Shown here piece by piece: positions 32,302 to 64,000 of a DNA stretch of 64,000 nucleotides. Origin of the DNA: Branchiostoma floridae (lineage: Eukaryota; Chordata; Leptocardii; Amphioxiformes; Branchiostomatidae); NCBI RefSeq assembly GCF_000003815.2, contig NC_049980.1, positions 12,973,430 to 13,037,429 of the forward strand. Reading direction: 5' to 3'. The notes beneath the pieces were generated by a model. The model made no database searches. It saw only the letters and a list, made by a program, of their open reading frames with translations, and was not told the DNA's origin. The position numbers were made by a program, and so were the translations under genes. Each line of letters starts with the position of its first letter. Position 1 is the first letter of the stretch.

Positions 32302-35300
32302 ATGGCTGCAGCACGTTTGAAGTGCGTTTCGGTGTGGCTTTCATGGATTATTCTGCTGTCAGTTTTGGAGGCGGCAGTTGGACTGCGCGTTGCCGAGGTG
32401 CACTGGGACTTGGGCGATGATTTTGGTAAGTGTTACTAAGTCTATTCTATATCTGTACATACATTAACGCCGTTAAAGTGATCATCCTATAATGAATGTG
32501 CCACATTTTCGTAACCTACTGAAATCAACATTGACAATACAACACCGTGCTATACTTGAACCATTACAGTATATGGATCCAACAACTAAGCGATCCCAGC
32601 AGGAAATATATATCATTTGGATCACGAATTTTCTTTGACTTGCAAATTCACAAAGAAACGGTGCGTTTCTTTTTCAAACGTTTTGGTTGTATTTGTAGTT
32701 TATTTGTACAATGGTTTTCCCGAGTATTTTGATTATAAGCGTTCGTTGTAAAATACACGTACACGTGCATTTGGTACTATATAATAGTACATGTAACGTT
32801 TCTAGAATACTCCTAAGACCTTACTCACTCTGTACAAAGCTTAGACCACGGGTTATTTCGAGAAATACTGTGATATGTTTATACTTTTCAGCTCAACACA
32901 AAATTTTGTCTGGCTTCGCAGTTTTGTCGTGAATCTTGTCGGCATGCTTCAATCTCATGGTCTAATATTGATTCCATTTGATTGAAATTCATTCGGCGGG
33001 AATAATGAGCTTTTCTTTAACATCCTTGTGGTGTCTGCTTTTTGTCTCCATGCACTGGCATTTTCCCACCCCATGTATCTCGATTTAACATTTGCGCGCT
33101 CAACACACACGACGATTTGTCTATGTATAAAGTGAGGGCGCGGTCACAGGTCGTGCGATCGTCGTACGATTTGATAGGAATTTCAAGCAGGCCGTGACAG
33201 AACCAACCACTGACATGGATCCAAAACAGCATTTTGTGTACCAAGACAGTTGAACTTTGCAGGAGTCATTTTTGCCTTCCAAAATTGCCCGAAGTTAGCG
33301 TTGGTACGACGATCGCACGGCCAATGTGACCACGCCCTATGGCACCTGTGTCTTTTTCAGCTGTATGTATTATACAAGGGAAATACCTAATGCTTCATCT
33401 CTAAACAGATGTTGGTCGAAGCTATTACTTGTTACGTTTTCCTATCTGTTGTTTTCTCCTATAAGGTTGTCACAGAAACGTGCAGCTTGGAAACATAACG
33501 ATTTAGCCCCCCACGACATCTGCTTGGAGACTACTTAAAATGTTTTCAACATCATGCGCGTTTTGCCCCATTGGTTGTTAAGAACATACCATTTGCCCAG
33601 TTTGAACTGTTCAGTCAGGTGAAAATACCAGGCACTAATCGTTTCTGGCGTGACCCTTTCTCCACACACTTAATTACGCTGTGGAGCCGGTTCCACCGAC
33701 ACAGCAGCACCATAATTACGTTCTAACAGATGTAACCACACAGAAGATAAAACGCTATTTCCCAGTACATGTATTACCACCAAAATATAACCATATGGCC
33801 ATGCACACTAACAGTACGGTGGTAGTTGGAGCTTTGATGTACAGACCCAAACTGTACTACTATATTTTGATTTGGAATGTCAGGTGTTGCAAAGTCTTTA
33901 ACCTCTGGCCTTTGGTGTCTGTAAAAGGCGTTGCAGCCTTAGCTTGGAGCTAGGGAGTAACTAGGGTAAGGGATAACCCATTGTTTCCAGCAGGTGTCGG
34001 TTTGAAATTAAGGCTGACAGAGAGCTTACTCACGGATTGAGTAATTGCGTTAGAAATGACAGACGCCCATTCGTACTACCCCATTATTGCACATACATGT
34101 ATCTGTTCGCAGTATACTAGTAGATATTGATTTGATACTTTATTGATTTCACTGATCGTACATCTTTTGCATTATTATGACATGTGCCAGTTCTTTCTTT
34201 GTTAATTATGATTTCATTGATCATACATTTTGTATAAGCATAGAGGAGGAGGGCACAGCATAAACCGTTAAGTTTTTTTTCCCTCCTCCTGCACCTGTTT
34301 TATATTTTATTCTCTTCTGTATCTATTATCATTTTGTATGTGCAAACTGAATAAACAAACAAACAAACAAAAGATAGATGTGAAAGCCTGTATTATATAG
34401 CTCATGGAGAGCAGACGCTATGTACACCTTGACACAACGTAAATGTTCATTGAAGAGAATACGTCAAACGAATACTTTAAACCCCAAGACACAAATCTTG
34501 AATCCCCCCTTTCATGAAGTTTGTCCCATAAACGAGATTATACTAGATCTTTCTAAAGGGGCATTCCACTCCAGAAACGGGTATTTCAATTCCTCAGAGA
34601 ATAAATAGTTATACCTAAATCAAGTTTGTTTGGCTAAATTTACCATAAGTTGAAGTCTTAATACAGGGCAAACTTTGTAGAGAATGAGTTCTTGAATTCC
34701 CCCGAGGACCTTTCAATTGTGCACTGGTGGGAAATGAGTAGAACAGGTACCGGTTAATTGGTACTGGTATAATTTTCGTGATACTAGGATGTTTTAGGAT
34801 TAATTTTTAGTAGGCTTAATATGTGTGCACAAACATCATGAGAATTGTCAGCCAACGCTTTTCAAATATTATTTGTGGGTTATTCTGTAGTAGTTTTCCA
34901 TGTATAAGTTTTATGTAGTCATTTTAGATAGAAACGCGCCAAAATCTTTGTTGCTCAAGTCTCTCTGGTTTTCAAAGATTTTGTGTACCCTTCTAAATGC
35001 CTGATAATCACTCGGCGCTTGTCGTTAGCTTAGTAGCGAGAAATCGTGCCCGACGTCGGTCATACAAGCAGTTTGGGCGTTAACGTTGCCATTTTAATTT
35101 GACCTACTTTCACCGTCTTATTCTAAAGTACCCAAATCTCTGTGTCCCAAGATGGGATAGTCTTCAAACTTTTTTTGTATCTCCTTGAATACTGATAGTC
35201 ACAAAGCTTCGTAAAGCTTATCCTGACTATAGCTCCCGTTAGCGAGAAAGTGTGACGGAAGTCGGCTATGAAAGCAAAATCATATACGGCACAGTACATT

Positions 35301-35794
35301 ATAAGTGGGTCTGTATGGGGGTACCTGGATCTAGAAAGCAGTATTGCCAAAAGGATAGATGTAATTTAGCCAAAAGTCGGGTGAATTTGTATCCCGAAAA
35401 ATATCATCTATCAGAAAATAACGCTCGCGTCTGGAGTGGAATGCCCCTTAAGCTTACTACCCTCAGCGATACATTGTGCCCGACGTCGGTCATACAAGTA
35501 GTTGGCCTACTCTCAACTCTGTCCAAAGTAAAAGTGACCAAAGTGAAAGTTACTAAAGTGACTTTTTTTATATTCACTTTTGGAATAGTCTGGGGTGCGC
35601 GATGGTTGAAATATGCTGTATTTGCTCGCAAATGGTCATGTCTAGTCTTAATAATATTTTCCTTTAGCCGCTGATATCCCGGACTTCATCTTACCGAGCG
35701 GAGTGAGAGTTCGGTTTAAGAGGAACGTCGCTGCCCCGACAGTCGCACCAACTGAAGCTCCTACAACGATCCCGGGATGCTCCAACAGTTCCAG
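32302..35794 (+). CDS. VWA/SEA gene exons 1-2: signal peptide and linker
   Basis: Exon 1, 32302-32425, begins MAAARLKCVSVWLSWIILL, a clear signal peptide, and ends in phase 1. Exon 2, 35668-35794, is a short Pro/Thr/Ala-rich linker (APTVAPTEAPTTIPGC) ending in phase 2. The 3.2-kb intron between them carries repeat debris: an inverted-repeat element (33132-33341), a retroposon-like A-rich tail near 34350-34372, and duplicated GTGCCCGACGTCGGTCATAC words at 35047 and 35475. Confidence 0.8.
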
Positions 35795-38700
35795 GTATGT
35801 CAAGTAGAGTAGGTCCTTGATTACAAGTTGTGTTGTTGATCGTCTTATTACCTTAGGCTTAGAGGTGGATTTTAAGCTTTCGTCAGGCTGGAGTTTAGAA
35901 GGCGGGGGATTATTTTTGCCGTGTTTCATTCCTACATGATCCTTCTTATCATTTTTTATTTTGTAGCAATACTTTGCTTACACCTAAGATGAAAGAACCT
36001 TTACAACGCATAGTGTGGTACAATTTGATATAGTGAGAAACTTAAATTAAGCCCCTGTCACATATTCAGTATCTTTCCACCACTTTGCTCCCGACCACTC
36101 TACAACCAAGGTGGGTTTTTGGTTCGAAGTAACCTACTTCACCCTCCATTAGCTTCACTTCAATCCTAGATCCCCCGATCGCATTTGATCATGAAGAATA
36201 TACCTTTCCCGATTTTGATAGTCCAAAATTCACAGTCGGCAGCTAGTGCATTATTAAGCAACCTCATCATCGACTGAAGGTCGGGAGTGCCATGGTAGGA
36301 AAGATACGTGTGGCAGGGGCATAACATTCTAAGCGGCTGTCGTTCCCTTCTTTCAAAGGGTCCAGCAGCTAAAGATCGGAGTGAGGCTGAATCTCACTCG
36401 CTCCTCCATCGAGGAAGCACGAAGAGTGTTCCTCAACGCCACACGAGTCGGGCGGCTGGGCTCGCTGAGAGTTCAGAATGGATCCGGGTCCTGGGACCAG
36501 TGTCCGTACCGCTCTCCCAACAACTTCTCCGGCTCAGAGAATCAGCGGATTCGAGTCGGCGTCCGGCTAAGTCTGGCTACCTCTGCGGTCGGGGAGGCGC
36601 AGAGTGTATTCCAGAACGGCGTAGTGGCGGGAAGATTGGGATCACTCAACGTGGTGCCAGGGTCTGGGTACTGGGACCAGTGCGTGAGCCATTCTCTGAC
36701 GACGCCATCATCTGGGTCGAGCATTCAGCGGATCCGGGTCGGTGTTCATCTGAACATGACTCGCTCAGCTCACGAAGAAGCACGGGAGTTGTTCCTCAAC
36801 AAGACCAAGGAGGGACGCCTGCGCTCTCTGCGTGTGGTGCCACGATCCGGGTACTGGAACCAATGCGGGAATGTCTCCATCATTCCCGATAAACCAACAC
36901 AAAGACAGCGTATACAAATGGTGGTGAAGTTGACAATGAACGAAACGGCGATCGACGAGGCACAGAAGTTGTTCTTGAATATGACGGGTGCAGGAAGGCT
37001 TGGCTCGCTGACTGTAGTGCCGGGATCAGGGTACTGGGATCAGTGTCCGGCTCGTGTACTCACACCGACTCCCGAACCACTCGGAAGGGTATGTTCCAGA
37101 GTTTTAGTTAGATTTTAAGTGGTAGATGCTTTTATCTGTAACAACTACTAGTATATCAAAACAGAATATGCCACTGTGTCAACAGAACCTTTTGTCCTTA
37201 ACATGTTTCGATGTTGTTGTTTTTTGCTACAACCAGAAAGAAATGATTTCCACGATAGTACATACATAGCTACATACTGAATTCGAATGATATTCCTCTT
37301 ATTACATGTTGTACGATTCTGCATGGTTGTAGAATGTTGCAGCTTTTTCTTAGTCGTGTAGCATCCTCCGTAAACGATGAACCAACTTTTCCATTATAGG
37401 TAAACTTTCAACAAATCATGATTTATGTAAAAGTGAAAAATATTCATTGACAATAACTTATTAACAACCATAAGGGAGAACAGCATACATGTACTAACAA
37501 AGGAATTTCGTACATGTAGATGTGTACATTTGCGTTGATTTATAACTCTTACTACCAAGTGCACAAAGTGGTATTTGACAGATTTTTGGAATGTTCTCTG
37601 CTGTTTACAGGTTCTGTTCGGCGTCGAGCTCTCTGTGCCGGTGTTTGCCATGAACGCGACCCGCCAGGTGTTCCAAGATCACATGGAGAACAACGGGACG
37701 CTGGGAGGTCTGACGGTGGCGTCCGACACGGCGGTGTTTGGTACGCACAACGAACTGGGTGGTATTCATATGCCACCTTGATGGTCATTTGACGTTGCAT
37801 TTGCGCCACCTTACGTGGTATACTTGAACAGACATTTACAATTGTGAGGGATTCCGAGCCAACTGTTGGTTATACCCCCCTCACATTAGACGAAAATCGA
37901 TCGGACGACGGGTCTGCGAGCTCTAAATTACGAGGGGGCATGACCCTGACGGGAACGGGGGAACTCTGCCATTTCTTCATCGGCATCAGGGTCATGCCTC
38001 CTCGTAATGATGGTCATTTGACGTTGTATTTACGCCACCTTGCGTGATATATTTGAATAACCATTTACACGTGTGAGGGATTCCGAGCCAACTGTTGGTT
38101 ATGGAAAGTCCATGCAAACTAAGTAGTATGGCACTCATGCTAAGGGATGTCTACCATGGCGGGACTTTCAAATTGTGTATCTTATCTTTTACCACATTGT
38201 CCTATAAAAAGTCCGACACTAGGGAATGGAGTTTTATTTTCCAATGGACTCAAGATACCTTTCTCTCACGATGATGATCTAAACGTTGACAGATCGACGG
38301 ACAAAACTAAGCCACATTGGAAAATTTTCGTTCAAGCAATTTTTCGTGTATCAAAATGTATCCAAATATGATACATTGATGATATCCATTTACAGGTGCC
38401 TTCCGGATGTACACCTCATTTATCCTGGAGCAGAGGTATAACAACACGCTGGACGACCTTACGTCATCGGAGTCTAGAACTCTCATTGGTCGCGTGGAAT
38501 CTGCGGTAAGAACGCCAGTTTTTCTTCAATATACATCCGCCCTTCCCTTCCTTCAGGCACAGGTGATTTATCTACGAAGAGTTTAATCTAGTATCCTTAT
38601 AAAAAAAATGTAATGGGGTGATATCGGTATGGCATTGTCTTTAATCAGAGATGATTACATTCTACTTGTATCTATACAGGTCAGGCTGGCGCTTACCCGT

Positions 38701-41700
38701 GTTACCGGAGTTCAGTCAGTTGAGTTCTACGATTTCAGACGAAGGTAAGACGCCCTAATATCTGTCTGTATCTACATAGCCGTTATAACCGCCCTTCGGC
38801 GTAACGCACCACCTTGTAGAAGAACTTTTACAAATCAAGTTAACACCGCCAAACTTGGTAAAATGTGCCTGTAAAATGTGCATGTATATTGGTGACGTAT
38901 ACATGTTCAACATGTATTCCTTCTTCCCAAAGTTCCGGAGAGAAGAAACCAGTCAGTATCGTGAGGCTAACCCTCGGTGCCAACTCCGTCACCTCTGCTG
39001 AGCAGGCCATCTGTTCGTGTGTGCGCACGGGTGAGATCGGGAGTCTCACCGTGGACTCTGGGCACTGCACCTTCGAGGCCGTCCGTGAGTATTTGTTCAT
39101 ATTATTTTCATATCGTTTATATTTCGGAGTTCAAAGTTGTAGATTGAAGCTTTCCAGATTTGATCCTGTCATGAATATTATCTTATCACTAGGTATCTCA
39201 CCAAACACTAACCTTGTATCACATTTCTTTACCACATTTACAGTTCACTATTAATGTCGACATGTCTTTGTGTACATCTCCGCGTTTTATATGACTGATT
39301 GACGGCGGGGTGACATTCATGGAAGGCTGTCATACCATTTGATTTCAATAAAGTTTCGAGCAGGCTGTGACAGAACCAACCGTTCACAAGGATCTAACAC
39401 TGCCTTTTCTGTAATAAGCTGAACTCCGTACGACATAGTATCACTATCTTAATAATGCCCTTAGTTTCCTATCGTGCGATGATCATACGACGAATGTGAC
39501 CTTTGTTTGTTACTTCGTTCATCTAATAGTAACATATATTGTAATCAACATTTTCCATAGAGCCCTGTACTATGTACAAACTTAGATAAATGTACAATTA
39601 CAGATTTACACACAGTGAATAACTAGCGGTAACATTTCTTTACAATGCTCTCCTAGCACCAACGTGTCGAAACGCGGTGGACCTGGTGTTCCTGGTAGAG
39701 TCGTCCGACGCCGTTGGTCAGGACGGCTTCCCCTGGGTCCAGCGCTTCATCACGTCAGTGTTGGGCGCCCTGACGATCGGACCAGACTTCTTCCAGATAG
39801 GGGTGTATCAGTTCAGCAATGTCGTCCGTCAGATCGTACCTCTTGGTGCTTTCTCCAAAAGGTACGTGATTTTTTTTTATACATAACGCGATAAACACTA
39901 TGTAATCCTCCTATTTCTATACCAGTCTACCAATCATCATCCCCAAAAGAAGATGCTGTGAACTTACGTGGTTATAGAGTTAAAGGCAAAGTGCATTCTA
40001 TACGTCAGTCAAATTGTTGTTGTTTTTTCCGTGTAAGTGGCTGAAAGTAACGATGACTGCTCTGAACATAAACGTGGAAGCCAATGAGCTTTTATCAGAA
40101 GCAATGTAGAAGTGTGGAAGGATCCACAAAACTGTCATTTTAGTTTACGATTGATGTTTACAACGTGTTTGTGACCGCAAATTGTCTCCACATTACAGTG
40201 CTGACATACAGAGGCAAGTTAGGTCCATGGCTCTGCTCGGAGGCGAACCCCAACTGACATCCAGCATGGTTTACGTCCTACAGCACGGGTTCCGGGTAAA
40301 CTCAAGACAGGGTACTCCTAAGGTATTTTCCGTTATCAAGTGGTTGGTGTATAGTTCTGTCCTTTGTTTACTCAGATTAGATAGTGGCAAGGTGGTCGTG
40401 TGTGACTTGTGGTAAGGGTTATTGACCAAGAGTTCTGAATTCATAGCAAGCCTTTATACCCATTTTCTCACTCGACTCAGGTGAAAATGTGTACCTAACT
40501 TCCTTTAACTTTTGGGGTGTCCTTTTCGGAGGTCCCACCACAATTAAGAACCAAGCTTGCTTCTAGATTCGCCCTTCTAAACGTATGATCATATATATGC
40601 CGTCTGTGTCGACAGCATTCTTACTCATTCGCTACTCCATTACTGTAGGTTCTTGTGCTTGTGGTGAGCGACAATTCCACCACCAGCGGACTCGACATGG
40701 TGGCTCAACATGCTGCTCAGAACGGCGTTGTGGTGTTCGGGGTTGGGGCAGGAGCAGGCCCATTGCGGGGGCAGCTGGAGACATTGGTCGGCTCCACCAC
40801 CGCCGTCAGCGTCGCTACGAGCTTCACGAGCCTGAAGCAAACAGAAAAGGGCGTCGTCAATAGTCTCTGCAACGGTACAGTGATTTGCTTTGCTAGGTGT
40901 TACTACATTCCCCAAACAGAGAGTGCTTTCTACTACATAAAAAGATATATCGATATATTGATTTTATTGATGATTATTATATATGTATAATTATAAGTAA
41001 ATAAGGCTTTGATATGTTGATTTTCAATATTCGCAAAATAGATACATGTTGTCAACCATATAAAAAGATGTGAAACGCATAAATCCAAACCCGATATGTG
41101 GTTAATTCGTCGTTCGATAAGATGAGTGCACTGCGTAAAATTGTAATTCTCCGACAGACGTTTTAGACTGGAAAGTCGTTAGCATATTGACCACACTCAC
41201 ACTACAATCACTGGTTGGAATTCCTTACGTAAAACTGAACACACACTTATTACGTAGGCACTTGAGTCTGTGAAGATAGGTTGAAGAATTATAACTTTTT
41301 GTGTTTTACAATACATTTTCATGTTTTCAAAACAGTTGGTCAGTTCCTGTACGGCACGGTTGTCATCAGAAGACGATTCAACGAGACTCTGCGAGATCCA
41401 ACTTCCCAGGAGTTTCTTAACCTTACTGCACAGGTTAAAGAAGGGGTGAGTAGAGAAACAGAAAGCTCCTTGGTCTGGCGTGGTTGAAGGACATGTCTGG
41501 CGTCGACCGACGAAGCAAGCTTAAGGAAGCATGGTGTCAGGCTCAGATGATAATCATTTTTGATATTACGTCCAAATGCCCTACTTTGCATATACTAACA
41601 TTCGGCTTGTTTAATCTTTTTTACGGGGTAATATATATTGTATTCTCGTTTTCCAGCTGTCTGACATATTTGTCGGAGGAAACTGCTTGCAACGGATTGT

Positions 41701-56700: not shown

Positions 56701-59700
56701 GGCGGCACGCTGACAGGAAAAGCTATTCGATATGTGAGTAGATATGGCTTTGCAGAGAGAGATGGAGCTCGTCCTGGAGTACCCAAAGTTCTCATCGTCG
56801 TGACGGATGGTGTCTCATCTGACGCAGTAAAACAGTCGGCGTTAGAGGCGCAGCAGAAAGGAATTTTCGTGTTCGCGATAGGTGTTGCCGGCTACGATAT
56901 GGCCCAACTGGAACAGATTGCAAGCAGCAATAGGTCTCTGGCTGTGGTGGACAACTTCAATCTCTTGGACAGCTTGAGGAACTCGCTTCTAACGGGAGTT
57001 TGTGATGGTAAGATTTCATAGTAATTTGTTTAACTCTAGATCAGTGAACTTTTGCTCCAATATAAAACGTTGTCAATGTTTGATGACTCTTTGTCCAAAT
57101 CAATGTGAAGATGACAGTGTATCCCTTTACTATTTTCACTTAGTTCCATCGCCTGTGGTCATAAGTCTCACACTGACCATCCAGTATTCCACAACAATGA
57201 GGAACCAAACCTCTATTGAGTTTGGCAGTATTTCTACAAGCCTTGCAACCGAGGTGAGCCCCAGTTTCTGACTAGTTTGAGTAAAGTCTAACTAAGACCG
57301 TCAAGCTTCATCGTGCACATGTTGGCAATTTGACTACTCTCGATTAGCCCTCTTACAGTACCATGTCGTTTCATTTTACAGTTATCTCGGATCTTCGTCG
57401 ATATTCCGGGATTTCAAGGCTTGACCATTGTGGGTCTGCAACCAACGTAAGTATATGTATATAAATGTAAATGGCGGCGCAATTCAGCTACTGCTGCTAT
57501 GCCGTGTATCTGTAAATAAAACTTGTCAAAACTTGTCAAACTGAGTGCTTAGATGCCATCTTTTAGTTAAACTTCAAAGAAAATCTTTCAAAATTAATTT
57601 CAATCTTGTTTAGTCCTAAGAATACGTCAACAAGCGTCATCGGATGTATGTCATTTGAAGTCATGCCGTAACTATTACTGTGACAAACATAATCTTCCTT
57701 TTTCTCACCTTTAGACCCACGAATCAGGTGAAGGCGACCATTACTGTGTTTGTGGCGCAATTTTCAACAACCACGATGAAAGTAACATTCATCAGTGCCG
57801 TGCAAACTGGGAGCTTGGGGTCAATATCAGTGAATACGTCTTCTGCACTCGTCATCGAACAAGGTAGGCAGATATAATTTGCCATCAAGTATAAATTTGA
57901 ATTTATTTAAGATAAGAGGATTTTTCATCAATCAGTGACTGTATGAAAGGTAAGTACACGTACCTCCAAATTTTCGATGGCTATCAGTCCATCTTGATCA
58001 CGGAGTGACCTATTTCTCGCGAGAGTTAGGAGACATACAGTCACTGATGAAAAATCCTATTAACTGTGAACATACGTGACTAATGAATCTCTTCAACGAA
58101 TTTATTTAAACTGGAAAATGTTATCAAGAATGAAGAGACGTAAATCAAGTGACAGCCATGTATCTTTTTCTTTTTTGATATGTGCTTAAGCTAATTACAC
58201 TGAAGGCACCAGCACAGGGGGGTTGGGTATATCTATTTAACGGTAGGTCCGATCGCAATTACTAGTAGAAAACAGCTCAGGCTTCAGGCTCCTCAGTCGG
58301 CAGAGGGACCGCTCTCTGCTGTGATACCGTGGACACTGCTGGGGAACAGTGGTCCTATTTATGACGAGTTGTGTCGATCATCTTATTAATTTTTACACCA
58401 CAGATGCCACGCAGTTGTTAGTAAGCTTTGTCATCACGGATCCGTGCAACGCCGATTTTCTCAACTCAGACTCTGCAGCGTACATGCAATTCGTCATTCG
58501 AGTGGAGAATGCGGTAAGCTTATTTGGCGTGCATTTGAAAGGATAATACCTTTATCGACAAGAAAGTCATCAATTTAAGAAAAAAGACTAGTATAGGTAT
58601 GACTCTTAAACTAAGACTGCAATATTCTATATTTCACAGTTAATGTCTTATACCGTTTTGTAGACTTAGTGGCTCTTCGTTTTTGTGCCTAAAATGTGTT
58701 GCATTCGTTTAAAGTGAATGTCATATTGCTGAAACATTCTGCTTTACAATATTCAGCTGCTTTCGATTCTTGGAAATATACCGGGAATACTGTCTGTGAA
58801 AGTGACCAGCATCAGTTGCTCGTAAGTAGAATCCTTTGTCACTATGTATTAATCTCCAAGCAGATCCTACGGTGCCATTAGATCACGATGATAAGATAGT
58901 ATCAAAGCTACCCAAGGAGTATAGCTGGCCAAAGGGAGTAAATTATAAAACGGGCACCGCATACACACTCCTAGGTCGGCTTGACTCCTCTTCCAGCATT
59001 TGATGCTATCTTATGCTACCGTAGGATCTGCTTAGAGATTAAGTATGTGTAACATTTGTCGTTGTCTTTATGATACAAATTAAGCAACCAGATTTCTTAT
59101 TTCCCTGTCTTTGGAACCTAAAATAAGAGAAATGACGTTCTTTTTTATGGTGCAATCTGAATTTCTCTTTCAGTGGGCTTTACATCAGAGTGACTATTAG
59201 TTTAGGAGTCGTATCAGCGTCCTCTGGTGGACTTGTCACGGCAATCTCTACAGATGTATCATCAGGAAGTGTAGGTGACCTGACTGTCGATCCAACTTCG
59301 TTCATTTCAGGGGAAGAAGGTCAGTAGACGATGATCAACTGTATTTTTGTGTGCAGAAACATAGCGACAGTTTAGAAAGAGTCAAAGTTATTTCAAATTT
59401 AGCGTAAGTTTCATGTTGTCTATTGACATTGAAAGTAGGAACCAAAGATTTAACGTACATAGCTCAAGAACTTGTCACCATATCGCTGTAAGCTCGCCTG
59501 TTGTGTGTAATTAGAGAGCAATAATGGAATGGAATTTCATAACAATATCATATCATTCAATTTACAGCGCTGGTGTGTCGAACTCCTCTGGACATCATTT
59601 TATTGCTAGATGGGTCTGGAAGTGTAGGGGCCTACAACTTCGAGAAAGTGAAACAGTTTTCTCAAAAGCTCGTCGAGACCTTTGACATCGGTCCATCTGC

Positions 59701-62700
59701 AACGCAAATAGGGGTTATCCAATACAGCACGCGTGTGAGACAGGAATTCTCCATGAACAGCTTCCAAAGCAAAGAAACTTTGTCCAATGCAGTCGACGAT
59801 ATTGCATACATGCGAGGCGGTACACTGACTGGAAGGGCTATCAGGTATGTGAGCAGGTACGGCTTTGCAAGATCGGATGGAGCTCGTCCGGGAGTAGCAA
59901 AAGTGCTTATTGTCGTCACAGATGGCATTTCGTATGACGGAGTGGCAACACCAGCATATAAAGCAAGACAGAAGGGAATCCTTGTCTACGCTATTGGTGT
60001 GTCAGGCTACGACCTGACGCAGCTCGAGCAGATCGCCAGCAATAACAGGACCTTGGCTGTGGTGGACAACTTCAACCTGCTGGATAGTCTGAGGAACACA
60101 CTTTTGACTGGAGTTTGCGATGGTAAATATGTTTTTGCATTTTTGTCAGGTTTTGGGGTCGAGAAATTGATTTTTTGTAAAGACGCAGGCCTTACACACT
60201 TATTTATCTTATCATTTACAGCCGTGCCACCAGTCTTTGTGTGTGTAACATTGACTACCCAGTTCTCCATACAACTGAGAAACCCTGACTCGAGCGAATT
60301 CTCCAGCATCACCAGTGCTCTCATTGCAGAGGTAGGGAAATGTTTGTTGCCATTATTGGAATTAAAGCATGTATACATACCTCAATTTCATCATATCACC
60401 TTGACTTTTGTCTGAATAAAATCATGGCTTTACCGGTAAATCGTCACAGGAATAAATAAAGCGTTTGATCATGAATAACACATTGAACCTTTTGTGCAGG
60501 TATCCCAACTATTTACCTCCATCGTGGGATTCCAAGGAGCAACTGTGGTTGGTTACCAACCTGCGTAAGTAGACCTCTTCAAGATCTTCTTCATTAAAGC
60601 TTATACATGTATCATTGTATACCTGACCGTGTAGTTATTTATCTTCAGAAGCTCTGAATGAAATAAGCTGGTGTTTATCCGGCTCCTTTTTTTTTTTTGG
60701 AGTCGACATACACAGTTGCCGTAATATTTCTTCCAACTTACTGTATTTCGTCGTTTGTTGATATACCATTACCAAATCAAAATAGAATTGAATGCTTTGC
60801 TGATAGGATCTCTTTCATAGAAAACAAATGTGTAATGATTTGCTATCATTTCAGCCCTGACAATCAAGTAAAAGTATCAATTGCTGTCTTTGTTGCTGAG
60901 TTTGCTGCTACTACTATGAAGCAAACATTTGTTGTTGCTGTAAGCACTGGCAACTTGGGGTCTATATCGGTGAATGCAAGCTCCGCCGTCATTGTTCAAC
61001 AAGGTAAGGATTGATTTATTAAAGATGATTATCACTTCTTATCCTTGCGTTTGTTGTGCTGCTCTTTGCAACGTTAATTTCAATAACTTTTTTCCACTGG
61101 TCGTCATATTATAAAAGAGGCTACGTTGGTGAAAAGAGCCATGTTGTTGTGTAGTTGGTCAAGATCTTTCCTTCATGAAACCGACATTAGTCACAATTTT
61201 TACTCTGCTCTGTCTTCCTTTCACCAGAAACGAATTCAACCATAGTAAGTCTGGTAGTTCAAAGGAATTGCAGTGCAGATCTACTCAACCCGGAGTCAGC
61301 GATGTACATTGCCCTGGTCGCTCAAATTGAATCTGCGGTGAGATCATATGACGAATTTATTGATGACTAGGCATATAAAAAGTGTTGTTTAGAGCTGAAG
61401 ACACTTTTTCCATGTCGACGCTAAAATCTCTCAGGAGTTTCCTTTTGCTTTATGTAGTATTGCTAGCAATTCACACACAAGGAAACACTAGTTACATGCA
61501 TGATTGTGTTCCATATTAATTGATAACATTTTCTCGTGGGTTTTGTTTGGTGATTTTGAATTGTTGGCAAGATTTTAGACATCTATATCATTTTCAGGCA
61601 GCTTAACATACTTGATGCCTTGTGACTAATAAGCCCTTTAATTGATCATTTTTAGGTGCTGTCTATTCTTCAAAACNNNNNNNNNNNNNNNNNNNNNNNN
61701 NNNNNNNNNNNNNNNNNNNNNNNNNNNNNNNNNNNNNNNNNNNNNNNNNNNNNNNNNNNNNNNNNNNNNNNNNNNNATTTCTGTTGACTTCAGACCGAGG
61801 CCTAGTCCAACCTTTGCATTTAGCACCAGTGCACTGCGACACATTGCTGTATAATTATCGGACGTTGACAACCTTTTTTTTTTTTCTCTCCAGTGGGCTT
61901 TACATCAGAGTAACCATTACTGTAGTGGTGGTGTCCACGTCCTCTAGTTCACTAGTGACGACAGTCTCTACAGCGGTATCATCAGGGAATGTGGGAGGCC
62001 TGACTGTCGATCCAACTTCATTCATTTCAGGAGACGAAGGTCCGTAGATCATATTCAGGATTATTGTAATGTCTCTCTGTCTAAATAGATTAATGCAGAC
62101 GTATTTTCTAAAAGTGCAAGAGTTTCATAATCGTTGCAAGTTATTGTGGCCTAACATTATAGCATTTTGTTTTCTCCATATGTACTCAGGAACCGTTCAA
62201 TATCCTTGTGAAGTCGTCCGTTGGGTGTATATAGTGGAAATAAACACTGAAATAGCAGATGTGACCAGTTAACAATTATATATTTTTTTTACAGCTTTAG
62301 TGTGTCGAACACCTCTGGACATCATTTTGCTGTTGGATGGATCAGGAAGCGTAGGGGCCTACAACTTTGAGAAAGTGAAACAGTTTTCTCAAAAGCTCGT
62401 CGAGACCTTTGACATCGGTCCATCTGCAACGCAAATAGGGGTTATCCAATACAGCACGCGTGTGAGACAGGAATTCTCCATGAACAGCTTCCAAAGCAAA
62501 GAAGCTTTGTCCAATGCAATCGACGATATTGCATACATGCGAGGCGGTACACTGACTGGAAGGGCTATCAGGTATGTGAGCAGGTACGGCTTTGCAAGAT
62601 CGGATGGAGCTCGTCCGGGAGTAGCAAAAGTGCTTATTGTCGTCACAGATGGCATTTCGTATGACGGAGTGGCAACACCAGCATATAAAGCAAGACAGAA

Positions 62701-64000
62701 GGGAATCCTTGTCTACGCTATTGGTGTGTCAGGCTACGACCTGACGCAGCTCGAGCAGATCGCCAGCAATAACAGGACCTTGGCTGTGGTGGACAACTTC
62801 AACCTGCTAGATAGTCTGAGGAACACACTTTTGACTGGAGTTTGTGATGGTAAATATGTTTTTGCATTTTTGTCAGGTTTTGGGGTCGAGAAATTGATTT
62901 TTTGTAAAGACGCAGGCCTTACACACTTATTCATCTTGTCATTTTCAGCCGTGCCGCCAGTCTTTGTGTGTGTAACATTGACTACCCAGTTCTCCATACA
63001 ACTGAGAAACCCTGACTCGAGCGAATTCTCCAGCATCACCAGTGCTCTCATTGCAGAGGTTGGGAAATGTTTCTTGCCATTGGAATTAAAGCATGTATAC
63101 ATACCTCAATTTCATCATATCACCTTGACTTTTGTCTGAATAAAATCATCGCTTTACCGGTAAATCGTCACAGGAATAAATAAAGCGTTTGATCATGAAT
63201 AACACATTGAACCTTTTGTGCAGGTATCCCAACTATTTACCTCCATCGTGGGATTCCAAGGAGCAACTGTGGTTGGTTACCAACCTGCGTAAGTAGACCT
63301 CTTCAAGATCATCTTCATGAAAGCTTATACATGTATCATTGTACACCTGACCGTGTATTATAGTCTCTTATTATATTATTCAGACCTTCAGAAGCTTTGA
63401 ATGAAATAAGCTGGTGTTTATCCGGCTCCTTTTTTTAGGAGTCGACATACACAGTTGCCGTAATATTTCTTCCAAATTATTATATTTCGTCGTTTGTTAA
63501 TATACCATTACCAAATCAAAATAGAATTGAATGCTTTGCTGATATGATCTTTTTCATAGAAAACAAGCGTGTATGGTTTTCTATCATTTCAGCCCTGACA
63601 ATCAAGTAAAAGTATCAATTGCTGTCTTTGTTGCTGAGTTTGCTGCTACTACCATGAAGCAAACATTTGTTGTTGCTGTAAGCACTGGCAACTTGGGATC
63701 TATATCGGTGAATGCAAGCTCCGCCGTCATTGTTCAACAAGGTAAGGATTTATTTATTAAAGATGATTATCACTTCTTATCCTTGCGTTTGTTGTGCTGC
63801 TCTTTGCAACGTTAATTTCAATAACTTTTTTTCCACTGGTCGTCATATTATAAAAGAGGCTACGTTGGTGAAAAGAGCCATGTTGTTGTGTAGTGGGTCA
63901 AGATCTCTCCTTCATGAAACCGACATCAGTCACAATTTTTACTCTGCTCTGTCTTCCTTTCACCAGAAACGAATTCAACCATAGTAAGTCTGGTAGTTCA
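32302..64000 (+). CDS. Giant multi-domain VWA/SEA extracellular protein (3' end outside window)
   Basis: At least 62 exons, all with GT-AG borders and compatible phases, encode about 3,500 codons; the gene continues past the window. Order: signal peptide and Pro/Thr linker (exons 1-2), five half-SEA units (exons 3-4), SEA1, VWA1, SEA2-3, VWA2, SEA4, VWA3, SEA5-6, VWA4, SEA7-8, VWA5, SEA9-10, VWA6, SEA11-12, VWA7, SEA13-14, VWA8, SEA15, start of SEA16. All modules from SEA1 onward are phase 1-1. VWA domains carry flanking cysteines as in matrilin- and collagen-type VWA domains; MIDAS is intact in VWA5-8. SEA domains resemble the mucin-16 type, ending in a D.S..F/L.V.G-like strand. No transmembrane segment is seen yet. 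Role: probably matrix, adhesion or mucosal surface, by inference from domain types only. Whether it is one transcript or several tandem genes rests on phase continuity and the absence of internal signal peptides or stop-bearing terminal exons. Confidence 0.85.
33132..33341. repeat. Inverted-repeat element, family R2 (copy 1)
   Basis: Ends GGGCGCGGTCACA and TGTGACCACGCCC are inverted, with inner CGTGCGATCGTCGTACGA opposed by GGTACGACGATCGCACG. It contains the family word CAGGCCGTGACAGAACCAAC, shared with 39300-39512 and 53200-53453. MITE-like, no coding capacity, in intron 1 of the VWA/SEA gene. Confidence 0.65.
34230..34372 (+). mobile_element. Possible retroposon 3' tail
   Basis: Poly-pyrimidine TTTTTTTTCCCTCCTCCTGCAC followed about 70 bp later by AATAAACAAACAAACAAACA. 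A similar CTTCCCCCCTGCAC plus AATAAATAAA layout occurs at about 9320-9400, suggesting a shared retroposon family. The 5' part is not recognisable. Confidence 0.35.
36051..36319. repeat. Inverted-repeat element upstream of exon 3
   Basis: GCCCCTGTCACA at the left is opposed by TGTGGCAGGGGC at the right, and GTATCTTTCC by GGAAAGATAC, spanning about 270 bp and ending 40 bp before exon 3. A lone GCCCCTGTCACACAG word in the GNL2 intron near 4492 may be a related end. Confidence 0.5.
36359..37740 (+). CDS. VWA/SEA gene exons 3-4: five half-SEA units
   Basis: Exon 3 (36359-37088, 730 nt) encodes four tandem units of about 60 residues with the pattern RI.V.V.L....(8)EA...F.N....GRLGSL.VVPGSGYWDQC. 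Exon 4 (37611-37740) encodes a fifth, more divergent unit (FGVELSVPVF ... GTLGGLTVASD). Each unit matches only the C-terminal half of the SEA modules further downstream (strand, helix, G.IGSL.V strand); the N-terminal 110-nt and 65-nt exon equivalents are missing. One Cys per unit at its end. Exon 3 is fused, whereas the downstream halves are separate exons, so introns were lost or the repeats arose inside one exon. Confidence 0.8.
37781..38103. repeat. Direct repeats flanking an inverted repeat in intron 4
   Basis: About 85-95 bp at 37780-37869 (GATGGTCATTTGACGTTGCA ... CCAACTGTTGGTTAT) recur at 38008-38103. Between them, TTACGAGGGGGCATGACCC near 37928 is opposed by GGGTCATGCCTCCTCGTAA near 37989. 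This looks like an inverted-repeat insertion accompanied by a long flanking duplication. Confidence 0.6.
38396..39084 (+). CDS. VWA/SEA gene exons 5-7: SEA1
   Basis: Exons 38396-38505 (110 nt), 38680-38744 (65) and 38933-39084 (152). First exon: strand plus N-terminal helix (RYNNTLDDLTSSESRTLIGR); second: TRVTGVQSVEFYDF; third: KKPVSIVRLTLGANSV ... GEIGSLTVDSG. Phases 1-0, 0-2, 2-1. The donor at 39085 (gtgagt) keeps phase 1. Confidence 0.75.
39300..39512. repeat. Inverted-repeat element, family R2 (copy 2)
   Basis: Carries CAGGCTGTGACAGAACCAAC (39362-39381) and a right end ATCGTGCGATGATCATACGA, matching copy 1 at 33132-33341; diverged. It lies in the intron between SEA1 and VWA1. Confidence 0.6.
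39657..40874 (+). CDS. VWA/SEA gene exons 8-10: VWA1 (three exons, degenerate MIDAS)
   Basis: Exons 39657-39861 (205 nt), 40199-40322 (124), 40649-40874 (226); total 555 nt, equal to the single-exon VWA modules. Starts with TCRNAVDLVFLV and ends NSLCNG, the usual flanking cysteine pair. The MIDAS DxSxS motif reads ESSDA (first Asp to Glu, last Ser lost); the third-site Asp (VVSDN) is kept. Confidence 0.85.
41336..44804 (+). CDS. VWA/SEA gene exons 11-16: SEA2 and SEA3
   Basis: SEA2: 41336-41445, 41657-41724, 41877-42031 (110/68/155 nt). SEA3: 44172-44284, 44441-44505, 44653-44804 (113/65/152 nt). SEA2 has RRRFNETLRDPTSQEFLNL and RGRIGTLVVDPASAVLG; SEA3 has TSQCFIPSLLDILSTEYRQF and STVFFGRT. 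The middle exon of SEA2 is 68 nt, one codon longer than all the other middle exons. A 41-bp minisatellite fills the 2.1-kb intron between the two domains. Confidence 0.8.
42316..42395. repeat. 27-bp tandem repeat, about three copies
   Basis: GGTTCTGATAAATATGAATA recurs with a 27-bp period just inside the left margin of the 41-bp minisatellite. Confidence 0.8.
42480..43925. repeat. 41-bp minisatellite, about 34 copies
   Basis: Consensus parts: CATCATTTACACAAGGAAGC then AGTTCTGTCCTTGGTGCTGAA, 41 bp per unit, head to tail. Decayed units extend left to about 42170. Variant positions (ACAAGGAAG, ACAATGAAA, ACAGTGAAG/A) define subtypes that recur in blocks, a sign of higher-order expansion. There are no open frames through the array. 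It is intronic in the VWA/SEA gene. Confidence 0.95.
45024..45578 (+). CDS. VWA/SEA gene exon 17: VWA2 (single exon, degenerate MIDAS)
   Basis: One 555-nt exon, phase 1-1. Starts EPVCRAKLDIVFVLDGS. MIDAS reads DGSDH (last Ser to His); the conserved Asp of the TDG site is Gly (LVSGGPSSDD). The fold-defining hydrophobic strands and closing SVCTG are present, so the domain is probably folded but unlikely to bind metal in the usual way. Confidence 0.9.
46089..46905 (+). CDS. VWA/SEA gene exons 18-20: SEA4
   Basis: 46089-46198, 46307-46371, 46757-46905 (110/65/149 nt). Key words: LGNPNSAAYSILVTQIRTE, DIVGLQGIAITSLQQ, GRIGTLVVIPGS. The only inter-VWA interval with one SEA instead of two; the 305-bp intron that follows has no room for a hidden second domain. 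Confidence 0.8.
47211..48354 (+). CDS. VWA/SEA gene exons 21-23: VWA3 (three exons, degenerate MIDAS)
   Basis: 47211-47454 (244 nt), 47802-47925 (124), 48129-48354 (226). The first exon is 39 nt longer than in VWA1 because of a Thr/Pro-rich linker (TTAAPPTTPQIKP). Exon sizes 124 and 226 match VWA1 exactly. MIDAS reads DSSNA, and the TDG-site Asp is lost (LTSGQ). Confidence 0.85.
48504..50220 (+). CDS. VWA/SEA gene exons 24-29: SEA5 and SEA6
   Basis: SEA5: 48504-48613, 48750-48814, 48941-49095 (110/65/155). SEA6: 49346-49458, 49797-49861, 50069-50220 (113/65/152). The sizes, and words such as IVVTEFRGSG and TSQCFTAALLDPTSPEHQEL, pair these with SEA2 and SEA3, marking the second copy of the 13-exon block. 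Confidence 0.8.
50614..51168 (+). CDS. VWA/SEA gene exon 30: VWA4
   Basis: 555-nt single exon. MIDAS DGSNS is intact, but the TDG-site Asp is Ala (VVTAGTSSDG), so metal binding is doubtful. Opens EPVCRAPLDIVFVLDGS and closes ASSCAG. It is closer in wording to VWA2 than to VWA5-8. Confidence 0.9.
51525..53171 (+). CDS. VWA/SEA gene exons 31-36: SEA7 and SEA8
   Basis: SEA7: 51525-51634, 51939-52003, 52204-52352 (110/65/149). SEA8: 52480-52589, 52769-52833, 53026-53171 (110/65/146). SEA8 is the first of the cysteine-containing type with RERCSGDLYDP in its first exon and VTHVGCV at the end of its second, probably an intradomain disulfide. Confidence 0.8.
53200..53453. repeat. Inverted-repeat element, family R2 (copy 3), with 20-bp tandem insert
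   Basis: Contains GCAGGCTGTGATAGAACCAA and inverted GGTCACA / TGTGACC ends, as in copies 1 and 2. Inside it, ACGAGTCGACATATGCAAAT repeats head to tail four times (about 53317-53396), absent from the other two copies. Confidence 0.65.
53730..54284 (+). CDS. VWA/SEA gene exon 37: VWA5 (intact MIDAS)
   Basis: 555-nt exon. MIDAS complete: DGSGS, Thr in GGTLTG, Asp in VVTDG. Cysteines at LLCGNS and TSVCDG flank the fold. The first of four consecutive domains with a full metal site, so capable in principle of ligand binding through a divalent cation. Confidence 0.92.
54415..56271 (+). CDS. VWA/SEA gene exons 38-43: SEA9 and SEA10
   Basis: SEA9: 54415-54524, 54633-54697, 54842-54990 (110/65/149). 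SEA10: 55433-55542, 55643-55707, 56126-56271 (110/65/146). SEA9 reads LRNPGSAEYTNLSVRVKTE and GSIGSISVDASSAF; SEA10 has the Cys pair DLCNADLL and TGIRCS. Confidence 0.82.
55740..55930 (+). repeat. tRNA-like SINE candidate
   Basis: TGGCTTAGGTGTGCAGTCGG and CCGGTTCAGACC, about 35 bp apart, resemble pol III A and B boxes, followed by about 110 bp of non-tRNA sequence. It lies in the last intron of SEA10. Weak evidence. Confidence 0.3.
56453..57007 (+). CDS. VWA/SEA gene exon 44: VWA6 (intact MIDAS)
   Basis: 555-nt exon with DGSGS, GGTLTG and VVTDG all present; ALVCQNPLDIIFLIDGSGS start and TGVCDG end. Very close in wording to VWA5, VWA7 and VWA8. Confidence 0.92.
57144..59319 (+). CDS. VWA/SEA gene exons 45-50: SEA11 and SEA12
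   Basis: SEA11: 57144-57253, 57382-57446, 57715-57863 (110/65/149). SEA12: 58404-58513, 58757-58821, 59174-59319 (110/65/146). SEA12 repeats the Cys pair (DPCNADFL, SISCS). Its flanking introns carry two inverted-repeat elements. Confidence 0.82.
57917..58058. repeat. Inverted-repeat element, about 142 bp
   Basis: AGGATTTTTCATCA plus AGTGACTGTATG at the left are mirrored by CATACAGTCACT plus TGATGAAAAATCCT at the right. MITE-like. Confidence 0.7.
58849..59042. repeat. Inverted-repeat element, about 194 bp
   Basis: TTAATCTCCAAGCAGATCCT is opposed by AGGATCTGCTTAGAGATTAA with one or two mismatches; the TTAA ends may be part of the target site. Non-coding, inside the SEA12 intron. Confidence 0.7.
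59568..60122 (+). CDS. VWA/SEA gene exon 51: VWA7 (intact MIDAS)
   Basis: 555-nt exon, ALVCRTPLDIILLLDGSGS start, GGTLTG, VVTDGIS, TGVCDG end. It differs from VWA8 at only two residues of 185 (ETLSNAVDD versus EALSNAIDD). Confidence 0.93.
60222..62039 (+). CDS. VWA/SEA gene exons 52-57: SEA13 and SEA14 (gap in SEA14)
   Basis: SEA13: 60222-60331, 60500-60564, 60855-61003 (110/65/149). SEA14: 61228-61337, 61656 to the gap at 61677, 61894-62039. The middle exon of SEA14 reads VLSILQN before the N run, so about 44 nt are missing if it is 65 nt like its relatives. The donor at 62040 is gtccgt, weaker than the gtcagt in SEA12 at the same position. Confidence 0.8.
61677..61776. other. Assembly gap (100 N) interrupting exon 56
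   Basis: 100 N begin 21 nt into the middle exon of SEA14. It lies between the two near-identical duplicated segments, where assembly is least trustworthy. Confidence 0.99.
62295..62849 (+). CDS. VWA/SEA gene exon 58: VWA8 (intact MIDAS)
   Basis: 555-nt exon almost identical to VWA7, 2,727 bp upstream; DGSGS, GGTLTG and VVTDG all intact. Confidence 0.93.
62949..64000 (+). CDS. VWA/SEA gene exons 59-62: SEA15 and start of SEA16
   Basis: SEA15: 62949-63058, 63224-63288, 63593-63741 (110/65/149). Exon 62 starts at 63967 (ETNSTIVSLVV) and is cut by the window end. All are near-identical copies of exons 52-55, introns included. Confidence 0.85.

What the first reader, a model, noticed from the sequence alone, without database searches (positions are those of the whole stretch)
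32302..64000. A giant gene built of alternating VWA and SEA domains
The plus-strand exons join in phase for about 10.5 kb of coding sequence: a signal peptide, five half-SEA units, eight VWA and at least fifteen SEA domains, still open at the window edge. VWA and SEA domains each are common in extracellular proteins, but I do not know a described family that alternates them on this scale. Its role (matrix, cell-surface or mucosal layer) is inference.
Basis: partly seen in the sequence, partly recalled or inferred. Interest (0 to 1): 0.8.

Follow-up and report, generated by a model that had tools for sequence, protein, structure and literature searches.

The report
Giant amphioxus VWA–SEA mucin-like gene
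This stretch of a lancelet-like genome holds the front third of a very large gene whose protein alternates adhesion domains (VWA) with mucin-type spacer domains (SEA) and seems to end in a mucin stalk anchored in the cell membrane, a combination for which I found no description.

Summary
Window exons from ATG 32302 give signal peptide, linker, five half-SEA units, 15 SEA (exons of about 110/65/149 nt) and 8 VWA; 60 exons, 10,403 coding nt. Phase-blind splice matrices trained outside the window gave 52 of 57 phase-consistent junctions. Pfam assigns SEA to 7 of 9 spliced array units tested, 3 above its cut-off; VWA8 scores 173.9 bits. The window ends about a third of the way in. Reading on gives 23 VWA and 46 SEA, then exons for EGF, a SEA with an autocleavage-type motif, Thr/Pro/Asn-rich mucin repeats, EGF, EGF, SEA, EGF and a transmembrane segment: 187 exons, about 11,100 aa. 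Ten VWA-SEA-SEA units are 96.6-99.7% identical, introns included. C12 has a second VWA-SEA array. A SEA-only array on C17 runs into the same order of C-terminal domains, which supports one gene. Best reading: a giant membrane-tethered SEA mucin with VWA adhesion domains intercalated, a new variant of a known kind. No transcript was available; one-gene status and function are inferred.

The parts
32302..32425 (+). exon 1: ATG and signal peptide (MAAARLKCVSVWLSWIILLSVLEAAVG...), donor phase 1
   Evidence: donor score 2.3; hydropathy peak 2.07 at residue 8, the highest of the part from exon 1 to SEA14
35668..35794 (+). exon 2: Pro/Thr linker, phase 1 to 2
   Evidence: joins exon 1 (phase 1) to exon 3 (phase 2); high splice scores; used by the module-blind path, which put one further exon (35415-35594) before it
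36359..37088 (+). exon 3: four half-SEA (C-half) units, the third weak
   Evidence: C-half profile without half-SEA seeds: 10.3, 17.1, -2.4 and 20.3 bits; predicted secondary structure four times strand-helix-strand, at low confidence
37611..37740 (+). exon 4: fifth half-SEA unit (weak), phase 0 to 1
   Evidence: 8.2 bits; splice sites
38396..39084 (+). SEA1 (exons 38396-38505, 38680-38744, 38933-39084)
   Evidence: no Pfam SEA hit
39657..40874 (+). VWA1 (exons 39657-39861, 40199-40322, 40649-40874); MIDAS degenerate
41336..42031 (+). SEA2 (41336-41445, 41657-41724, 41877-42031)
   Evidence: Pfam SEA 24.9 bits, below cut-off
44172..44804 (+). SEA3 (44172-44284, 44441-44505, 44653-44804)
45024..45578 (+). 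VWA2, single exon; MIDAS degenerate
46089..46905 (+). SEA4 (46089-46198, 46307-46371, 46757-46905)
47211..48354 (+). VWA3 (47211-47454, 47802-47925, 48129-48354); MIDAS degenerate
48504..49095 (+). SEA5 (48504-48613, 48750-48814, 48941-49095)
49346..50220 (+). SEA6 (49346-49458, 49797-49861, 50069-50220)
   Evidence: Pfam SEA 30.4 bits, above cut-off
50614..51168 (+). VWA4; MIDAS degenerate
51525..52352 (+). SEA7 (51525-51634, 51939-52003, 52204-52352)
   Evidence: Pfam SEA 23.2 bits, below cut-off
52480..53171 (+). SEA8 (52480-52589, 52769-52833, 53026-53171)
   Evidence: no Pfam SEA hit
53730..54284 (+). VWA5; MIDAS intact
54415..54990 (+). SEA9 (54415-54524, 54633-54697, 54842-54990)
   Evidence: Pfam SEA 27.0 bits, above cut-off
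55433..56271 (+). SEA10 (55433-55542, 55643-55707, 56126-56271)
56453..57007 (+). VWA6; MIDAS intact
57144..57863 (+). SEA11 (57144-57253, 57382-57446, 57715-57863)
58404..59319 (+). SEA12 (58404-58513, 58757-58821, 59174-59319)
59568..60122 (+). VWA7; MIDAS intact; first unit of the near-identical array
60222..61003 (+). SEA13 (60222-60331, 60500-60564, 60855-61003)
   Evidence: Pfam SEA 19.0 bits, below cut-off
61228..62039 (+). SEA14 (61228-61337, middle exon not seen, 61894-62039)
   Evidence: N gap 61677-61776
62295..62849 (+). VWA8; MIDAS intact
   Evidence: Pfam VWA 173.9 bits
62949..63741 (+). SEA15 (62949-63058, 63224-63288, 63593-63741)
   Evidence: protein identical to SEA13
63967..64000 (+). 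start of SEA16 first exon (63967-64076), cut by the window edge

Best explanation
It is one giant gene of a lancelet (probably Branchiostoma floridae; species inferred). It encodes a membrane-tethered, mucin-like adhesion protein of about 11,000 residues. Order: signal peptide; five half-SEA units; SEA; a rod of 23 VWA, mostly in VWA-SEA-SEA units; a small unassigned domain; EGF-EGF-SEA-EGF; about 800 residues of Thr/Pro/Asn-rich mucin repeats; a distant relative of the unassigned domain with EGF-EGF-SEA-EGF; a transmembrane helix and a cytoplasmic tail. Proposed working, inferred: the SEA domains of the rod lack the Gly-Ser cleavage motif and act as stable spacers; VWA5-22 keep a complete metal site (MIDAS) and give repeated cation-dependent adhesion sites held away from the cell surface; SEA47 and perhaps SEA48, beside the mucin stalk and the membrane, keep Gly-Ser motifs (GSVVA, GSLYG) and act as a self-cleaved, force-releasable joint, as in MUC1-type mucins. 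The gene grows and is homogenised by tandem copying of a symmetrical phase-1 unit of about 2.7 kb. Shown here: domains, exon phases, motif presence and absence, unit identity. Inferred: single transcript, membrane topology, glycosylation, cleavage, ligand binding and tissue.
For: 168-exon model whose only five phase breaks lie at assembly gaps (phases guided the exon choice); 187 exons with the C-terminus. Path searches blind to modules, with scores trained elsewhere in the gene, found A/B/C/VWA exons of the usual lengths at 104-113 kb and reached the same stop, 134345, at three penalties. Pfam: VWA; all six EGFs; SEA47 43.7 bits. Mucin part 810 aa: 32.5% Thr, 9.4% Pro, 11.6% Asn, 90 N-x-S/T sites. 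Transmembrane peak 2.74, the highest from VWA18 to the first tail exon. MIDAS complete in 16 of the 21 VWA that can be read in full; degenerate in VWA1-4 and 23. GS[VIL] at the cleavage place in 0 of 42 readable array SEA, present in SEA47 and SEA48. The C17 paralogue goes from a SEA array to the unassigned domain (28% identity, E 1.7e-6), EGF, EGF, SEA, EGF (Pfam) and Pro/Thr repeats in the same order. Nine of the ten young units: 7 nonsynonymous against 16 synonymous-only variable codons of 292, which suggests constraint.
Against: No cDNA or proteome was available. SEA48 has no Pfam SEA hit and matches only the looser motif: GSLYG fails GS[VIL].?[VIL]. Two of nine array SEA tested have no Pfam hit. 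In MUC16 the predicted SEA cleavage sites were not the ones used (passages of PMC4456727), so a motif does not prove cleavage. The C-terminal model was partly set by hand: the path searches read the first two EGF exons in a wrong frame or skipped them, the donor of EGF1 is weak (1.8), and paths differed between penalties (33, 30, 25 exons). The tail after 129562 is uncertain: one predicted exon (131565-131729) is weakly PWWP-like, below Pfam's cut-off, and may belong to another gene. A 6.4-kb stretch without modules (97.9-104.3 kb), rich in repeats, could separate two genes. No transmembrane or mucin end was recognised by eye downstream of the C12 array. Several N gaps interrupt the array.
Confidence: 0.6

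Rival explanations
1. Two or more genes: a secreted giant VWA-SEA matrix protein (ending near 98 kb or 115 kb in extended coordinates) followed by a separate transmembrane mucin. The array would then work as a secreted bead-string like collagen VI or matrilin.
For: 6.4-kb stretch without modules at 97.9-104.3 kb; VWA relatives in PDB are led by collagen VI alpha 3 (score summed over 8 stretches) and mussel proximal thread matrix protein 1; no mucin or transmembrane end recognised by eye downstream of the C12 array.
Against: The same VWA-SEA-SEA exons resume at 104-113 kb and can be joined in phase; the C17 paralogue also goes from a SEA array into the same order of C-terminal domains; no collagen triplet run longer than 3 within any array exon.
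Confidence: 0.27
2. The near-identical part of the array (59.6-87.8 kb) is partly an assembly artefact: two haplotypes laid end to end, or copies collapsed or expanded around N gaps, so that true copy number differs. (This can hold together with the best explanation.)
For: Ten units 96.6-99.7% identical including introns; N gaps inside the array; VWA11 and VWA17 break frame about 55-85 nt from a gap edge.
Against: Diverged units on both sides (VWA1-6, 18-23) show the repeated architecture independently; the C12 locus has its own runs of identical or near-identical VWA.
Confidence: 0.35
3. The gene is a decaying relic, not expressed.
For: Frame breaks in two VWA next to gaps; two splice donors read GC instead of GT.
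Against: 3,126 codons from the signal peptide to SEA14 without a stop; 4,073 codons from VWA18 to the first tail exon without a stop; more synonymous-only than nonsynonymous variable codons among nine young copies.
Confidence: 0.05

Closest known systems
SEA-type transmembrane mucins (MUC1, MUC3, MUC12, MUC13, MUC17)
   Same: Signal peptide, Thr/Pro-rich mucin region, SEA beside EGF domains, transmembrane helix, tail; SEA with a Gly-Ser motif near the membrane. Passages seen: PMC9080433 (C-terminus of transmembrane mucins other than MUC4 has SEA, EGF-like domains, TM and tail; MUC1 and MUC16 lack EGF) and PMC4456727 (GSVVV site of MUC1; MUC1, 12, 13, 17 have a single SEA).
   Different: Those named in PMC4456727 have one SEA and, as far as I recall, no VWA; here there are 48 SEA and 23 VWA, and the mucin region is small beside a domain rod.
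MUC16 (CA125)
   Same: Very large membrane mucin with about 56 SEA (passage seen, PMC4456727).
   Different: MUC16 has no EGF (passage seen, PMC9080433); VWA absent as far as I recall. Here the array SEA are interleaved with VWA.
Collagen VI alpha 3, matrilins and VWF-type A-domain bead-strings
   Same: Many tandem VWA; best PDB sequence relative of VWA8 is collagen VI alpha 3.
   Different: No collagen triplets; SEA spacers and a membrane-mucin end.
C12 locus in the same genome (14.81-14.91 Mb)
   Same: About 29 VWA with 26 A-half and 4 C-half SEA hits, mostly weak, between them; two A-halves between successive VWA in places.
   Different: VWA sequences form a separate group; no C-terminal mucin or transmembrane part recognised by eye in the fetched DNA.
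C17 locus in the same genome (2.87-2.89 Mb read; weak SEA hits from 2.81 Mb)
   Same: SEA array followed by unassigned domain, EGF, EGF, SEA, EGF and Pro/Thr mucin repeats.
   Different: No VWA hit in the 20 kb read (L029, L030).

Membership tests
SEA-type transmembrane mucin | SEA domain | tested here: met
   Pfam SEA above cut-off for 3 of 9 array units (7 of 9 with E<0.01) and for SEA47 at 43.7 bits; SEA48 no hit
SEA-type transmembrane mucin | Thr/Ser/Pro-rich (PTS) region | tested here: met
   810 aa, 32.5% T, 9.4% P, 5.3% S; no published PTS predictor was run
SEA-type transmembrane mucin | EGF-like domains beside the SEA | tested here: met
   EGF or EGF_CA above cut-off for EGF1-EGF6
SEA-type transmembrane mucin | Single transmembrane helix and cytoplasmic tail in the same chain | tested here: inconclusive
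   hydropathy peak 2.74 and exons that can be joined in phase; no transcript proves one chain
SEA-type transmembrane mucin | SEA autocleavage | not testable with these tools
   GS[VIL] in SEA47 and SEA48, in 0 of 42 readable array SEA; cleavage itself not testable
SEA-type transmembrane mucin | Dense O-glycosylation, apical location | not testable with these tools
   needs protein
VWA (integrin I / A-domain) with metal site | VWA fold by profile | tested here: met
   PF00092 173.9 bits (VWA8) and 121.9 bits (VWA23); the other 21 were not scanned with Pfam
VWA (integrin I / A-domain) with metal site | MIDAS DxSxS...T...D (motif recalled) | tested here: met
   complete in 16 of 21 fully readable VWA; degenerate in VWA1-4 and VWA23
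VWA collagens (e.g. collagen VI) | Gly-X-Y triple helix | tested here: not met
   longest run 3 triplets within any of the 168 exons; no run of 8 or more in the three forward frames of 32302-134345

The most novel reading that the evidence does not exclude
A previously undescribed class of chordate membrane mucin in which adhesion modules (VWA-SEA-SEA) are inserted into the ectodomain and their number changes rapidly by unequal exchange of a symmetrical 2.7-kb unit, so that individuals carry tethered adhesins of different length. It would be an accordion-like adhesion or barrier molecule, with cleavable SEA joints kept only next to the membrane and the mucin stalk.
Probability: 0.35. Interest if true: 0.78.

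Novelty: new variant of a known kind. Interest (0 to 1): 0.62.

Why it matters
It joins two building blocks not known to me on one chain at this scale: repeated metal-site VWA adhesion domains and a SEA/EGF/mucin membrane anchor. At about 11,000 residues it would be a very large protein even among giants. With its C17 (SEA-only) and C12 (VWA-SEA) relatives it offers a natural series for asking how membrane mucins are built by exon shuffling. It gives an internal test of what SEA domains do: a Gly-Ser motif is kept in the two domains near the mucin stalk and membrane and missing from the 42 readable spacers. Ten near-identical units make array length a directly testable polymorphism.

Tried and rejected
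Half-SEA exon folded alone by AlphaFold2: mean pLDDT 37.7, so no fold search was run; only the strand-helix-strand rhythm was noted. One array SEA against PDB sequences: no convincing hit; SEA47 gave weak hits at E 0.078 (transmembrane protease serine 11D) and 0.72 (entry 1ivz). Ordinary A and B half exons before the first half-SEA unit: none found; the phase was solved by the linker exon. C16 VWA cluster: VWA plus Sushi-like modules as I read them, no convincing SEA hit in the 20 kb read. C17:2785-2795 kb: a VWA beside VWD-like and EGF-like modules as I read them, no SEA hit. A first path search with a low exon penalty gave spurious small exons and was replaced. Is the domain before EGF4 a copy of the one before EGF1? 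Only weakly: 24% identity over 119 aa, E 1e-4 for one comparison, and the whole-genome search did not list it.

Literature: seven searches on this question and two on side questions, all in the PMC open-licence library, gave no VWA-SEA alternating family. Passages only were seen of PMC8994340, PMC6109156, PMC10381214, PMC3374290, PMC3927612, PMC4456727, PMC12373286 and PMC9080433; other papers only as listings. PMC8994340 mentions a variable SEA domain of an amphioxus gene on Chr2; whether it is this gene I could not tell.

Rows left out: gap-cut SEA14, 16, 18 and 32 from the readable SEA (42 of 46); SEA46 and repeats of identical proteins from the SEA tree (29 rows); split or partial C12 VWA from the VWA tree (23 of about 29 used). 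Nine of 46 array SEA and two of 23 VWA were scanned with Pfam. The codon count used nine of ten young units and only the VWA and first SEA of each. Searches of the whole genome score only the best candidates, so counts elsewhere are lower bounds.
Full report
WHERE IT IS. The window is C2:12973430-13037429 of a 513-Mb genome in 431 contigs.

OBSERVATION. Profiles seeded with window peptides find VWA, SEA N-halves (A), middles (B) and C-halves (C) in the order SEA1 V1 SEA2 SEA3 V2 SEA4 V3 SEA5 SEA6 V4 SEA7 SEA8 V5 SEA9 SEA10 V6 SEA11 SEA12 V7 SEA13 SEA14 V8 SEA15 on the + strand; the best minus-strand hit is E 0.55. A exons are 110-113 nt (phase 1 to 0), B 65-68 (0 to 2), C 146-155 (2 to 1), and VWA is 555 nt (1 to 1), or three exons in V1 and V3. 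Each module is therefore a symmetrical phase-1 cassette. The 5' end is exon 32302-32425 (signal peptide), linker exon 35668-35794, four half-SEA units in 36359-37088 and a fifth in 37611-37740; against a profile without half-SEA seeds, three of the first four match, the third does not, and the fifth is weak. In all, 60 exons and 10,403 coding nt lie in the window.

CONTROLS. The expected phases guided exon choice, so I tested them apart. Splice matrices trained on 27 exons at 88-98 kb and applied without phase information picked the modelled acceptor in 58 of 59 cases and the modelled donor in 54 of 59; 52 of 57 junctions agreed in phase. A path search with codon and splice scores from beyond 88 kb, given the first exon and the last donor but no modules, recovered 50, 50 and 51 of 55 exons at three penalties, with 14, 10 and 5 extra exons. 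Pfam found SEA in 7 of 9 spliced units: S2 24.9, S6 30.4, S7 23.2, S9 27.0, S13 19.0, S20 17.2 and S41 27.8 bits against a cut-off of 26.4; none in S1 and S8.

BEYOND THE WINDOW. Reading 120 kb to the right, with coordinates continued from the window, gives VWA9 to VWA23 and SEA16 to SEA46. The 168-exon model has five phase breaks, all at N gaps. A module-blind path from VWA20 to 113805 found A, B, C and VWA exons of the usual lengths at 104-113 kb, a part not used for training. From 113696 such paths reached the same stop, 134345, at three penalties, but with 33, 30 and 25 exons, and they read the first two EGF exons in a wrong frame or skipped them; I set those two by hand in the EGF frame, which fits phase 1 to 1, the donor of the first being weak. 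The end then comprises: an exon joining SEA46's C-half to a domain with no Pfam match (115678-116294); EGF, EGF; SEA47; EGF; Thr/Pro/Asn repeats in five exons between 118312 and 122404 (810 aa); a weak relative of the unassigned domain (124654-125106; 24% identity); EGF, EGF, SEA48, EGF; and a transmembrane exon 129065-129177 with the segment IALGVLGGALFLFILLLCA. All six EGFs are Pfam hits above cut-off; SEA48 is not a Pfam SEA hit. The model to the first tail exon has 187 exons, 33,332 nt and about 11,100 aa, without the exons lost in gaps. The tail beyond 129562 is unsure.

FUNCTIONAL SIGNS. MIDAS is complete in VWA5-22 wherever it can be read in full (16 of 16; VWA11 and VWA17 are cut by gaps) and degenerate in VWA1-4 and VWA23. 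None of 42 readable array SEA has GS[VIL] at the B/C junction; SEA47 has FRPGSVVADYTV and SEA48 FRNGSLYGAHTL, the latter failing the stricter pattern GS[VIL].?[VIL]. The MUC1 site is GSVVV, but in MUC16 the predicted SEA sites were not the ones used (passages of PMC4456727). The nearest sequences of known structure to VWA8 are collagen VI alpha 3 (summed over 8 stretches), mussel proximal thread matrix protein 1, collagen VI alpha 1, VWF and integrin alpha 2. Functions are inferred from these likenesses.

HISTORY. Ten consecutive units (59568-87780) are 96.6-99.7% identical over ungapped columns, introns included; the other five units compared are 55.5-72.1% like them, and the pair at 90.4-95.2 kb is 86.8% alike. 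Nine of the young copies differ at 23 of 292 codons, 16 of them synonymous only; most differences are found in one copy. Trees pair V1 with V3, V2 with V4, S2 with S5, S3 with S6 and S4 with S7: an older duplication of the block V1-S2-S3-V2-S4. The SEA tree also separates a type found directly after VWA from a type found before the next VWA, with moderate support (86/86 and 93/90). The 23 VWA here fall on one side of a branch from 23 VWA of the C12 array (support 94/89), which suggests that the arrays grew, or were homogenised, separately.

RELATIVES. C12:14.81-14.91 Mb has about 29 VWA, with 26 A-half and 4 C-half SEA hits, mostly weak, between them, and two A-halves between successive VWA in places. 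On C17 there are weak SEA hits (E 0.003-0.005) at four places from 2.813 to 2.879 Mb; the 20 kb read (2.874-2.894 Mb) is a SEA array without VWA hits that goes into the unassigned domain (28% identity, E 1.7e-6), EGF, EGF, SEA with GFSPGSIKADV, EGF (Pfam: three EGFs above cut-off, the two SEA halves 18.7 and 25.6 bits) and Pro/Thr repeats. This is the strongest support for one gene. The C16 VWA cluster is VWA plus Sushi-like modules. No other species could be searched. A passage of PMC12373286 reports accordion-like copy-number change of immunity genes in lancelets; it does not mention VWA, SEA or mucin.

VERDICT. That VWA and SEA here are coding modules of one frame is, in my judgement, near certain. 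The architecture is a new variant of the SEA-type transmembrane mucins; seven searches of an open-licence library gave no description of it, which leaves subscription journals and database annotations unexamined.

Noticed in passing
42556-43885: A 41-bp minisatellite with 32.4 copies in the intron between SEA2 and SEA3; the Rfam mir-2060 hit (43803-43894, minus strand, 62.8 bits) overlaps its end, so that miRNA family may be a minisatellite product.
   Followed up: no
C17:2874001-2894000 (L030, L029), weak hits from C17:2813562: A SEA array without VWA hits in the part read, ending in EGF, SEA, EGF and Pro/Thr mucin repeats: possibly a MUC16-scale lancelet mucin.
   Followed up: partly
L026-L027 (C16:12186001-12206000, minus strand): Another array alternates VWA with Sushi-like modules, by eye.
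   Followed up: partly
extended 131565-131729 (L007:7565-7729): Predicted tail exon with weak PWWP likeness (17.9 bits, cut-off 25.6), which may belong to a neighbouring gene.
   Followed up: no
extended 65768 and 77692: Two splice donors of the young units read GC instead of GT.
   Followed up: no
extended 70545-70640 and 87791-87889: VWA11 and VWA17 change frame at about residue 30, close to an N gap: probably contig-edge errors.
   Followed up: no
extended 98024-104160: The long stretch between SEA40 and VWA21 carries repeated blocks with open frames, seen by eye.
   Followed up: no
2394-2714 (+) and 10103-11230 (-): Left half of the window: a GTPase-like frame (PNVGKSS) and a leucine-rich-repeat frame of neighbouring genes, by eye.
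   Followed up: no
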